In this document: positions 1-39,316 of the stretch, piece after piece
Layout of the letters: each line of letters opens with the position of its first letter
Numbering within the stretch: the stretch's first letter is position 1
NCBI GenBank assembly: GCA_036169595.1
Contig: CM069767.1
Span: forward strand, 2,776,501 to 2,840,500
Source of the DNA: Dictyostelium firmibasis
Taxonomy: Eukaryota; Evosea; Eumycetozoa; Dictyosteliales; Dictyosteliaceae
DNA: 64,000 nt
Direction: 5' to 3'
Translations under genes and position numbers: made by a program
Notes under the pieces: generated by a model
What the model saw: only the letters and a program-made list of their open reading frames with translations
Database searches by the model: none
What the model was told of the DNA's origin: nothing

Positions 1-903
1 GTATCAAAGATGGAATTAATACAGATTTCAATAATTTGATACATAATTTGATCCAAGTCACCTGATTCAGATTTTTTAAGGGTCTTTCTTTCAACTATTC
101 TTTCATTTGAAGTTTTAATTGCCAATTCTTTACAAATTCTTGTGCAAATCATTGGTAAATTCTTTTCTTTTAAAAATTTAGCGATTTCAATTGCAAAACT
201 TGGGATAATTTCTTTAATTGATTGGTTTATAACTTGATTAAATGAATTCAATTATTCACTTTCCAATATTTTTGAACTGTTTAGTTCTTCTTTTTCACCA
301 TTCGAATCGATTTCCATCTTATTCTGTTTTTTTGGTTTTGGTGCTTTCATTGAGTCATTGTAAATATGGTATGCACTCTTGACCATCAACATACTAGCTT
401 CAAGCATTTTGCCTTGATATTCAAGTATATTTGGCTTTATTGTTGATGGTAAAAATCCATAAAAGTCTTTATTCTTTTGATACTTTTCAATTTCTTCTTT
501 GTATTCTAATTTTTAGGAAGAGAAAAAAAAAAAAAAAATTTTAAATAATTGTCGGTGATACAATAAAAATAATAATTTTTTTTTTTTTTTTTTTTTTTTG
601 TAAATAATTATTAATAAACTTACCATGGTGTTTTTTTTGTAATTCTCTTGAAATACTTAATTCCCAATTTTCTTCTTTATCAAGAATTGATTTAATTTTT
701 TTAATTTGAATCTGTTTTTCTTCATAAATCTTATGAACTTTTTCACAAATTTTAATTGTGAGGGATGGTTCTGGTTGATTCTTTTCTAAAAATATTTTTG
801 CTGTACCAATAAGTGAATTTGTATCATTTTCACTTGACAAAAAAATTTGAAAGATGTTATGTTTGTCCTCTTCAAATGATTTTAATTTATTAATTTCTAT
901 CAT
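1..903 (-). CDS. Unknown coiled-coil-like protein, 3' end cut by window, in-frame stop
   Basis: I do not recognise this family. Exon 1 is 624-903 and starts MIEINKLKSFEEDK. It is joined to an exon running from 505 to the window edge by a GT-AG intron (donor GTAAGT, acceptor ATTAG) in phase 1. The protein is Lys/Glu-rich and probably helical, with no signal peptide or membrane segment. After the residues ILESE the frame meets TAA at 252-254. The same frame then stays open for more than 80 codons to position 1, with ordinary coding composition (LNSFNQVINQSIKEI and on). In DNA this AT-rich a stop-free run of that length is unlikely by chance, so the gene probably once read through. Either it is a recently broken gene, or the annotated protein ends there, or the base is a sequence error. 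No plausible intron removes the stop. Confidence 0.6.
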
Positions 904-1397: not shown

Positions 1398-2432
1398 TTA
1401 ATAACCATAGAATTTACCATCAGTAGTTTGTACAATGAATGAATTTGATATTTTTAAAATCTTTGGAGAATCAACTAAGATACCATTTATAGAATTGTAA
1501 AGATTTTTGATTGATTCCAATGGAATATTAAGTTTTTCAGAGACTGATTTTTTAATGACATCTATTGTTAATTGACCTGATGGAACATCAATCAATTGGA
1601 ATAATAATGGATCTTTATTGATCATTACACTGTAAAATCCTTCTTCTTCTTCTACTTCTTTATCTTTTTGTGGTAAATTATAGTCAGAAACAATACCAAG
1701 ATCTTTGAGTAACTTGATCATTAATGGATCATGTGAATCTAAATCTACCATTAAACTATTCTTTGCTAAATCTAATAAACTTGATTTTGTGGTAGTACCA
1801 TTAGAAGTTGGACGAATAGTTTTTGAACCTGAATCTTTGAGAATGTCCCATTTGCAAACTTGATAACATAATAATTCACCGGTTGCTACATTTAATTGAA
1901 TATTCTTGAGAATTAAAATCTTGCATGAAATTGACATAGTTTCCACAGGTTTTCCACCAGTACCACCAGAAATTGAAACATTATTAATATTGCAATAATG
2001 CATTTCGTACTCGATAATTGGAAGTACATCATCTTTAATCTTTCCAATGGCACGATGAATGATATGTGGAACAATTTCATTACGTAATGTCATATAGTTT
2101 AATGATGGTGAACGATCACATATGAATTTAGTTAATGTCAAATCACCAATATGTTTTCTTGATCTTCTTCTTATATCTTCGCTGCTAGAAACATTATGAG
2201 AGAAACTCATAACATCAATCCAATCTAAAGTCAATTCATCAATTTTTTTATCTGTAGCATCTTTTGGTTGGTTATATCCATGTTGATTACCTGTTTGTGG
2301 TGGTGCTGGATCATTTTCATTTGGTGCCAACATAGCAACAAAGAGATCTTTTTGATTTTCAAAGGTTGGAATTTGATAGTTTGGTGCATTAACATTTGTG
2401 TCAATTGGAATCCATACTCTAATTACGTCTTT

Positions 2433-2435
<3 letters not shown>
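1398..2435 (-). CDS. Protein with Hcp-like (type VI secretion tube) domain
   Basis: Single-exon gene of 345 residues. Residues 30-200 follow the pattern of the Hcp family (bacterial type VI secretion tube protein, Pfam T6SS_HCP). The key stretches in order are WIDVMSFSHNV (72-82, like Hcp IDVLSFSWG), GDLTLTKFICDRSPSL (97-112, like DLSFTKYIDKSTPNL), INNVSISGGTGGKPVETMS (150-168, like SSVSTGGSGGxxxTENVS) and CKWDI (194-198, like YGWNI). The order and spacing match a complete beta-barrel Hcp unit. An insertion of roughly 15 residues falls before the fourth strand. Residues 268-345 form a second small unit (LTIDVIKKSVSEKLNIP, then GILVDS) that looks ubiquitin-like and is faintly like the C-terminus of CP2 factors. 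There is no signal peptide or membrane segment. Homology is seen by eye only and the function in an amoeba is unknown. A transferred bacterial gene is the simplest origin. Confidence 0.7.
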
Positions 2436-18430: not shown

Positions 18431-21290
<2,860 letters not shown>

Positions 21291-37083: not shown

Positions 37084-39316
37084 TTAATTTAATAACCATT
37101 TAAGAGCAGTTTGGACATGATTATTTAAACTAACCTTAACATTTTTAACCTTTGCAACTGACACATATTTTTGTGTTTCATTATGACTTTGGATGTCATT
37201 AATGATTTTACCAGAGATTTCAAGAGATAAAACTTCTTCACCAAGGAGATTGATTTCATGTGGTGAATGGCCTTCTTTAGCTTTACAACGAGCACTTTCA
37301 AATGTATCGAGTTCAATTTTATGAACTCTAAGGATTTCATTTAATTTTTCGAGTTGTTGCTCTTTATTTGGAATATTGGATTTCTTGATGTTATTTATTT
37401 CCAAAGTGAGGTATTCTTCATAGTCATGATTAACTGGAACCAATGAATTGTGAGCAACAAATATGGCGAATTTAGCAAAGGCATTTGAAAGGATATCAAA
37501 TTCTTTTTGATATTTTTCTTTGAGTGCCAAGTTTTCTGCAACTCTTCTGTTGGCAACAGAGGTAAGCTCCTCTTTGGAAAGGATTTTTCCTTTAATACCT
37601 TCATCGACAACTTGAATTGCTTCTTTAACATGAACGATATCAGATGCGGTGTGATCCTTGTATGAGCAACCACATTCTTTACAGCCACCAAAAATACCAA
37701 ATGTATGATGCCAGTAGAGACTTGAATCCTTGTTAATTTTATTTTTATATTCGAGTGAACAATGACGGCCAACAAATTCTTTAGAACCATTTTTAGTGTT
37801 TATTTTACCAGTTTTGTGACAACTTAATTTATTACAGAAAATAGCTGACTCCTCTAATTGTCCCCAAACCAATCTATCGAGTTGTGCAGTTACCAATGGT
37901 CTTAATTGCTCCAAATCACCTCTATGTTTCTTGATGTTTTCATTTTGTTGTTCAATATTTGCTAAAAATCTCTGAATTGAAGTTAAACAGAAATGAATTG
38001 GTGTTCCCATCTTTCTAATCATTTCTCTGGTGTTATTGATACATTCAGTGTCTTTAACTCTATGTGGTGGAGTATTGACAATGGTATTCATTAATCTAGT
38101 GGCTTCAGAAGCGGATCTCCTCCAACTGGTACCATAGATTTGAAGATCATCTTCAGAAAATGCTGCACCTTTCAATGAAGAAGCCAAGACATTGAATCCC
38201 TCATTTTCGAAACAAAATACTCTACCGGTTGTATCCAATTGAGCATTTGCATGTTCAATTGATTTCAAATGATTCTCGAGAGTAGAAAGTGCTGGACCAG
38301 CTTTATACATTGAACCTCTAGAATTTGTAAAGCAAAAGAAGATATTGTTCTTTGCAGAATAATGTAAATGATGTAACAACTCATTGATACAATACTTGAA
38401 CATGGTATTGATTCTATTTTCGTTGGATTTTAATAAAATTAAAATACCATGAATTTCTTCGACTTTAGTGAGCTCGCTAAGAATCATTTCAAAGTTAATG
38501 TCATCTTGTTTACAACCACGAGTATCACCAACACCTGGTGTATCTAAAATGGTCAAGGTTTTATTGTTTCCCATATCTATGACATATCTCTTTGGTTTAA
38601 CTGTAACTGATGCACCATCTTTATGTTCATTTGAAAGGTATTTTGATTGACCAATAATGAAATTATGATGCACATTATTTGAATCAAAAACTTCAACTCT
38701 GTTTGGAATGGTTGCTACTTCTAGTAAATTGGCAAGTCTTATGGCCTCCGCTAAAGTTTCATATCTTAAATAGTTTACTAATGACGAAATAAATGTACTT
38801 TTGCCAACACCAGTACTACCCAAAACCAAAATATTTGTATTTAAAGGTTGTTTCTCAACTTTAACTTTTTCTTCTGTTTTTTCTTCAACTTTTGGTTCCT
38901 CTTCAACTTTTGGTTCCTCTTCAACTTTTGGTTCCTCTTCAACTTTTGGTTCCTCTTCAACTTTTGGTTCCTCTTCAACTTTTGGTTCCTCTTCAACTTT
39001 TGGTTCCTCTTCAACTTTTGGTTCCTCTTCAACTTTTGGCTTCTCTTCAACTTTTGGTTCCTCTTCATCATTACCTTTTGTTATTTCTTCATATGCATAT
39101 TTGGGTTCTTGTGGTTCATCAACACAAGCTCTACCCTCAATTGGTTCTTTTTCTTCGATATTGGCATTTTCAACCTTTTCTGCCAATTGACTTACGGCAT
39201 CATCTGGGGCGTCTAAAATATTTTTAATAAATTTTGATTAGATTGGATTTAACAAAAAAAAAAAAAAAAAAAAAAAAAAACAATAAAATTTAAATACCTC
39301 CTACTGGAATATGCAT
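37084..39316 (-). CDS. AIG1/septin-like GTPase with Lys-Val-Glu-Pro repeats
   Basis: A micro-exon 39298-39316 (MHIPVG) joins exon 37084-39212 in phase 1, giving 715 residues. The N-terminal region to about 115 is acidic, with eight perfect KVEEEP hexapeptides and flanking variants. The GTPase domain follows: P-loop GSTGVGKST, a Thr-bearing switch near DGASVTV, DTPGVGDTRG (G3), a long hydrophobic strand IHGILILLKSN and CFTNSRG in the G4 position. That order fits the AIG1/TRAFAC group of AIG1, Toc and septin proteins. Residues about 480-550 carry paired Cys/His (CNKLSCH, GRHCS, HHTFG, CKECGC) that could bind zinc. The rest is helical. There are no membrane segments. AIG1 relatives act in immunity in plants and vertebrates; the role here is not known. 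Confidence 0.85.
38884..39066. repeat. 18-bp coding repeat in the AIG1-like gene
   Basis: Ten adjacent 18-bp units (tcttcaacttttggttcc and close variants) encode the KVEEEP hexapeptides on the minus strand. Units are identical at third positions, which shows recent expansion. They also keep several other frames open. Confidence 0.95.

What the first reader, a model, noticed from the sequence alone, without database searches (positions are those of the whole stretch)
1398..2435. Hcp-like type VI secretion tube domain in an amoeba gene
Residues 30-200 carry the Hcp pattern in the right order: IDVMSFSH, DLTLTKFICDRSPSL, the SISGGTGGKPVETMSIS hairpin and CKWDI. Hcp forms the ring stack of the bacterial type VI secretion tube and belongs to the contractile phage-tail fold. 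I know of no settled function for it in eukaryotes. Here it is fused to a C-terminal unit that looks ubiquitin-like, with no secretion signal. It could be a domesticated bacterial protein, a decoy that caps type VI tubes fired by prey bacteria, or part of an internal injection-like device. The family reading is from sequence; the roles are inference.
Basis: partly seen in the sequence, partly recalled or inferred. Interest (0 to 1): 0.85.

Follow-up and report, generated by a model that had tools for sequence, protein, structure and literature searches.

The report
Amoeba protein built from bacterial injector-tube part
Social amoebae carry a gene descended from the bacterial protein that forms the tube of a toxin-injecting machine; it keeps the inner surface that binds toxins, has lost the loop used to stack into a tube, and is fused to a ubiquitin-like domain, so it may catch injected bacterial proteins.

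Summary

It is an Hcp homologue but not a T6SS tube protein. VgrG, PAAR and sheath models match nothing in the genome, and the bacterial stacking loop is not kept (1 of 14 conserved positions). Eight of eight residues named in print as Hcp3 cargo contacts have the bacterial letter as dictyostelid majority (P 0.0008, rows not independent).

Best reading: a cytosolic Hcp subunit or ring that binds proteins through its lumen surface, most plausibly injected T6SS cargo or Hcp, and hands them to the ubiquitin system. Identity is near certain; the trap role is inference (0.38). My searches found no paper on this gene.

The parts
1398..2435 (-). whole gene, 345 aa, single exon, ATG..TAA (codons 2435 down to 1401, stop 1398-1400)
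   Evidence: relatives
2400..2435 (-). residues 1-12: Hcp strand 1 (MKDVIRVWIPID), aligned to bacterial MDAIILDLG
2223..2399 (-). residues 13-71: dictyostelid-specific insert between strands 1 and 2; holds the P-x-x-ENQKD motif (helix predicted at 25-36; P23 and E26-D30 invariant in 14 of 14) and a variable linker
1821..2222 (-). residues 72-205: Hcp core barrel
2190..2210 (-). residues 76-82 MSFSHNV: strand 2 with S77 and S79 = Hcp3 S29 and S31, cargo contacts; both invariant in 15 dictyostelid and 47 bacterial rows
   Evidence: contact list from PMC13323088
2148..2189 (-). residues 83-96: place of the bacterial extended loop L2,3; 9-25 aa and unconserved in 15 dictyostelid rows, 19-20 aa and conserved in 47 bacterial rows
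   Evidence: role of the loop PMC4650826
1932..1976 (-). residues 154-168 SISGGTGGKPVETMS: lumen loop, G160 and K162 = Hcp3 G121 and K123; 10 of 10 bacterial-conserved positions of Hcp3 118-129 kept
1842..1856 (-). residues 194-198 CKWDI: last Hcp strand; W-D conserved in amoebae and bacteria
1662..1820 (-). residues 206-258: part between Hcp and UBL (LLDLAK..LMVDLDSHDP..IKLLKDLGIVS.YNLP); residues 220-258 conserved; no Pfam match at E <= 1 shared by the family
1632..1661 (-). residues 259-268: variable acidic linker
1401..1631 (-). residues 269-345: ubiquitin-like (beta-grasp) domain; ends GKFYGY, without a conjugatable Gly-Gly

Best explanation
The gene encodes a domesticated Hcp. An ancestor of the dictyostelids took up an hcp gene of the Hcp3 (9qpe) type, closest today to Pseudomonas and relatives, and it was joined to a ubiquitin-like domain. 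The product is predicted to be cytosolic. It keeps the Hcp barrel and the residues that line the lumen and hold cargo, and has lost the loop by which rings stack. Proposed mechanism: single subunits or unstacked rings bind proteins through the lumen surface, as bacterial Hcp3 does when one subunit grips an effector and others close round it. The targets are effectors, or Hcp subunits, injected by the T6SS of bacteria that the amoeba meets or eats. The ubiquitin-like tail then brings the captured cargo to the proteasome or another ubiquitin receptor. Shown: homology, architecture, spread, no partners found, kept lumen residues. Inferred: ring formation, cytosolic place, cargo identity, hand-over.
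For: Homology. Ubiquitin-like tail: (E 6e-5; best of 78 decoys Probab 1.8). Spread: 14 of 14 full-length proteins found, the window's own included, in Dictyostelium, Polysphondylium, Heterostelium and Cavenderia; one side of the tree at 100/100 against 47 bacterial rows. No partners found. Lumen kept: 8 of 8 cargo-contact residues named in PMC13323088 (S29, S31, E56, T60, N113, S115, G121, K123) have the bacterial letter as dictyostelid majority, against 44 of 102 positions conserved in at least 75% of bacterial rows (hypergeometric P 0.0008); five of the eight are identical in 15 of 15. With the six of section 8 alone and a 90% threshold: 6 of 6 by majority, P 0.009. Stacking loop lost: 1 of 14 bacterial-conserved positions kept. 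The fold does not demand both S31 and K123: aligned 7fcf, 5xeu and 3eaa differ at both. The Hcp core is under constraint in the closest paralogue pair (dN/dS 0.25).
Against: No experiment and no expression evidence was seen. Rows are related, so the P values overstate independence; N113 and S115 were added to the contact list after the first test; at 90% identity in dictyostelids the six-residue enrichment is weak (4 of 6, P 0.096). The window protein itself has D at E56 (E in 11 of 15 rows), and T60 and N113 also vary. S31 is not special to Hcp3: Hcp1 has it too (PMC7043769). The GG loop may be kept for folding or ring closure rather than cargo. A host trap in an arms race might be expected to evolve fast; this family is old and fairly stable. 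The ubiquitin-like domain is the least constrained folded part (0 of 77 columns invariant, mean pairwise identity 0.49), its fold match is moderate, and weak Pfam hints to PB1 and GRHL1_C leave its exact class open. No receptor-binding surface was tested.
Confidence: 0.38

Rival explanations
1. Domesticated Hcp ring as a chaperone or scaffold for an amoeba protein: the lumen was kept but the client is now endogenous, unrelated to bacterial attack; the UBL tail regulates turnover or location.
For: Old, stable family with its own invariant insert motif (ENQKD) and conserved linker, which suggests host partners; purifying selection on the Hcp core in the closest pair; PMC13323088 and PMC7043769 describe Hcp as a cargo binder, and the latter as protecting cargo from degradation (passages).
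Against: A new client would be expected to remodel the lumen, yet the bacterial cargo-contact residues are the kept ones.
Confidence: 0.33
2. Decoy or cap: the amoeba subunit enters incoming bacterial Hcp rings and caps or disassembles the tube.
For: PMC13323088 (passage) says that Hcp proteins could form heterohexamers; two PDB titles name a Bacteroides Hcp2-Hcp3 heterohexamer; loss of the stacking loop would suit a cap.
Against: Mixing with bacterial rings should preserve the subunit-subunit edges, but the strand-7 segment keeps only 1 of 11 bacterial-conserved positions and identity to bacterial Hcp is 34-43%. Interface residues were not mapped.
Confidence: 0.14
3. Drifting remnant: a transferred gene kept by neutral processes with no defined role.
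For: One decayed copy in this genome; dN/dS 0.81 and 0.88 in comparisons with paralogue L002.
Against: Full-length proteins in four dictyostelid genera; 44 invariant columns in 14 proteins; dN/dS 0.33 for the closest pair.
Confidence: 0.1
4. Part of an internal contractile injection device in the amoeba.
For: Only the presence of an Hcp-fold protein.
Against: VgrG, PAAR, VipA, VipB and phage-sheath models: 0 of 5 match the genome; stacking loop lost.
Confidence: 0.02
5. Bacterial contamination or assembly artefact.
For: The domain is bacterial in origin.
Against: On a 4.94-Mb contig with two further intact copies, among amoeba genes (EXS/SPX, myosin, cortexillin); third-position GC 0.18, within the 0.13-0.33 of six neighbours; relatives in other dictyostelids.
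Confidence: 0.01

Closest known systems
P. aeruginosa Hcp3 (H3-T6SS; PDB 9qpe, PMC13323088)
   Same: Barrel fold, MSxSHN strand, GGxGGKPVET lumen loop, WD end; all eight named cargo-contact residues as dictyostelid majority letter
   Different: Bacterial, 165 aa, with a conserved 19-20-aa stacking loop in its relatives, works in a T6SS; the amoeba protein has an insert, a linker and a UBL tail, no T6SS partners found, and a divergent loop
Other Hcp types (5xeu, 5xhh, 7fcf, 3eaa, 1y12)
   Different: Weak sequence similarity to the amoeba profile (E 2.3e-5 or worse); 7fcf, 5xeu and 3eaa differ at both S31 and K123; Hcp1 keeps S31 (PMC7043769)
Hcp-extended effectors (Hcp-ET)
   Same: Hcp fused to a further domain; described in a passage of PMC13323088
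   Different: There the extra domain is a toxin in a bacterium; here a ubiquitin-like domain in a eukaryote
Ubiquitin / UBL domains (ISG15, parkin UBL, midnolin UBL)
   Same: Beta-grasp model; alignment over ubiquitin 22-71
   Different: No C-terminal Gly-Gly; low identity; moderate fold scores; function untested

Membership tests
Hcp homologous family (Pfam PF05638) | profile match above curated cut-off | tested here: met
   31.3 bits against 23.5; three places in own genome over cut-off
Hcp homologous family (Pfam PF05638) | Hcp barrel fold | tested here: met
T6SS tube protein (TssD) | extended loop L2,3 for ring stacking | tested here: not met
   1 of 14 bacterial-conserved loop positions kept; length 9-25 against 19-20
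T6SS tube protein (TssD) | sheath, VgrG and PAAR partners in the same genome | tested here: not met
   PF04717, PF05943, PF05591, PF05488: 0 matches in the genome; E. coli among the control genomes rings each time
T6SS tube protein (TssD) | hexameric ring | not testable with these tools
   monomer prediction only
T6SS cargo-binding lumen (Hcp3) | cargo-contact residues | tested here: met
   8 of 8 by family majority, 5 of 8 identical in 15 of 15; 7 of 8 in the window protein itself (D at E56); binding untested
Ubiquitin-like domain | sequence similarity to ubiquitin above decoys | tested here: met
   Probab 65, E 6e-5; best of 78 decoys Probab 1.8
Ubiquitin-like domain | beta-grasp fold in a model | tested here: inconclusive
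Conjugatable ubiquitin | C-terminal Gly-Gly | tested here: not met
   ends GKFYGY

The most novel reading that the evidence does not exclude
A eukaryotic cell-intrinsic immune receptor built from the attacker's own weapon: a cytosolic Hcp mimic that grips T6SS effectors by the very surface they must keep for loading, and sends them to the ubiquitin-proteasome system. Effectors could not easily escape without losing their own delivery.
Probability: 0.3. Interest if true: 0.95.

Novelty: new variant of a known kind. Interest (0 to 1): 0.78.

Why it matters
Hcp is regarded as a part of bacterial injection machines. A conserved Hcp-UBL family in social amoebae would be a clear case of a eukaryote domesticating a contractile-injection tube part. 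D. discoideum is a genetic model attacked by T6SS bacteria (PMC3166118, abstract) and host to T6SS-bearing symbionts (PMC11882306, start of abstract in a listing), and it carries a close relative, DDB_G0288943 (71% identical), so the role can be tested at once. A trap that uses the loading surface would be a general way to resist T6SS cargo.

Full report
What is there. The window lies in a 31.5-Mb genome of 12 contigs, on a contig of 4,942,790 bases. A relative on a contig of the same length is labelled Dictyostelium firmibasis (P0002), and its open frame is copy L002 of this genome, so I take the window to be that species; taxonomy: Amoebozoa, Dictyosteliaceae. The open frame at 1398-2435 is on the minus strand, 345 aa, with an ATG start and TAA stop and no intron.

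Spread and age. A single-sequence search (14 of 2070 candidates at E <= 0.001) and a profile search (14 at E <= 0.01 of 7995 scored) return the same 14 full-length proteins, the window's own included, all dictyostelid: D. firmibasis (two), D. dimigraforme, D. discoideum (two, one of them DDB_G0288943), cf. discoideum (two), D. citrinum, Heterostelium album (four), Polysphondylium violaceum, Cavenderia fasciculata. All 14 match T6SS_HCP at E <= 1, best 4.2e-14. A domain-only profile search finds 187 proteins at E <= 1e-5 among 3082 candidates; 120 were listed, and each of those that carries an organism name is bacterial (the length limit bars full-length amoeba proteins from this list). Identity of the listed ones to the window domain is 34-43%. 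On a tree of 15 dictyostelid and 47 of those bacterial rows the dictyostelids are one side of a branch at 100/100 (bootstrap not settled, midpoint root, C. fasciculata on a very long branch). One ancient acquisition followed by duplications is the simplest reading; the root and the donor are not resolved.

Copies in this genome. The window protein finds three intact copies, the window gene and a pair about 480 kb away (92% and 76% identical), and a decayed copy between the pair with stops. NG86 dN/dS for window against L001 is 0.33 overall and 0.25 in the Hcp core; comparisons with L002 give 0.81 and 0.88. These are rough in an AT-rich genome.

No machine. Models of VgrG/base V (PF04717), VipB (PF05943), VipA (PF05591), PAAR (PF05488) and phage/eCIS sheath (PF04984) match nowhere in the genome; in each case control genomes ring. 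The search is exon by exon in six frames, so strongly divergent partners could be missed.

What was kept and what was lost. I aligned 15 dictyostelid with 47 bacterial rows and numbered them by P0119, which equals the 9qpe chain but for one residue. Of 83 positions conserved in at least 90% of the bacterial rows, 39 keep the bacterial letter as dictyostelid majority. By segment (boundaries set by me): strand 2 8 of 9, strand 3 5 of 5, lumen loop 118-129 10 of 10, but extended loop 36-52 only 1 of 14 and strand 7 1 of 11; the rest lie between: N-terminus 2 of 7, helix 3 of 9, strand 4 1 of 2, strand 5 5 of 10, C-terminus 3 of 6. PMC13323088 names S29, S31, E56, T60, G121 and K123 as repeated contacts with the cargo in the lumen (section 8), and N113 and S115 among contacts shared with a second effector in a model (passage). 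All eight are the dictyostelid majority letter; S29, S31, S115, G121 and K123 are identical in 15 of 15 and 47 of 47; E56 is E in 11, T60 T in 13, N113 N in 12 of 15, and the window protein has D at E56. Among 102 positions conserved at 75% in bacteria, 44 are kept, so 8 of 8 has hypergeometric P 0.0008; leaving out the lumen loop and the extended loop, 6 of 6, P 0.003. With the six section-8 residues and the 90% rule in bacteria, P is 0.009 by majority, 0.096 for 90% and 0.028 for 100% identity in dictyostelids. Rows are related, so these are guides only. In Hcp1, changing the lumen residue S31 to Q stops the tube taking up its cargo Tse2 (PMC7043769, passages); that Hcp1 S31 and Hcp3 S31 are the same position is my inference from the number. 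Other Hcp types can do without these letters: 7fcf has A and F, 5xeu R and E, 3eaa A and R at the places of S31 and K123. The extended loop is the ring-to-ring contact in B. pseudomallei Hcp1, where a double change stops stacking but not hexamer formation (PMC4650826, passages), and loop L2,3 is reported as needed for effector delivery in E. coli Hcps (PMC5874247, abstract). In dictyostelids it is 9-25 residues long and unconserved, against 19-20 in bacteria.

How it most likely works. In bacteria one Hcp3 subunit first binds the effector, then others close round it (PMC13323088, passages). A dictyostelid protein that keeps the gripping surface, drops the stacking loop and has gained a ubiquitin-like tail is best read as a binder of lumen cargo, without a tube. 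Because the kept residues are those that bacterial effectors contact, I favour injected T6SS cargo (or Hcp) as the target and the ubiquitin system as the destination. The strongest rival is an endogenous client. A hydropathy scan shows no transmembrane-like stretch (highest 19-residue mean 1.09), consistent with a cytosolic protein; no signal-peptide predictor was run.

Known or new. The protein database carries a precomputed PF05638 label on 9 of the 14 proteins, and none on DDB_G0288943. My searches found no paper on the gene or on eukaryotic Hcp (open-licence main texts only, capped lists). I file it as an Hcp-domain homologue with a new architecture, not as a T6SS tube protein.

Noticed in passing
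own genome G000:C3:2293329-2293857 (minus), L087-L088: A decayed fourth copy of the gene with in-frame stops lies between the two intact copies of the distant pair; the public gene model P0002 (439 aa) carries a tail resembling such a copy, so it probably runs past the true end of copy L002 (346 aa open frame).
   Followed up: partly
PDB entries 9qpe and 3he1: Both are called Hcp3 of P. aeruginosa but differ in sequence: a query equal to 9qpe but for one residue meets 3he1 only at E 0.073.
   Followed up: partly
window 20145-21290 (+): Polyubiquitin gene of five head-to-tail ubiquitin units, ending with an extra Asn, in the same window as the Hcp-UBL gene; probably coincidence.
   Followed up: no
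window 1662-1820 (-), residues 206-258: Region between Hcp and UBL is conserved across dictyostelids (mean pairwise identity 0.65 for residues 220-258) yet has no convincing Pfam match; a possible docking module.
   Followed up: no
window 2328-2369 (-), residues 23-36: ENQKD motif inside the insert is invariant in 14 of 14 dictyostelid proteins; the bacterial rows aligned have no insert there.
   Followed up: partly
Heterostelium album proteins P0009, P0010, P0011, P0013: Four Hcp-UBL paralogues in one species; P0013 groups with P. violaceum on the tree (90/67), which hints at an early duplication.
   Followed up: no
window 541-903 (-): Neighbouring 120-aa open frame (probably an exon) with no Pfam match at E 0.001.
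   Followed up: no
window 37084-38574 (-): 496-aa GTPase-like open frame (DTPGVGDTRG motif, recognised from memory) with no Pfam match at E 0.001.
   Followed up: no
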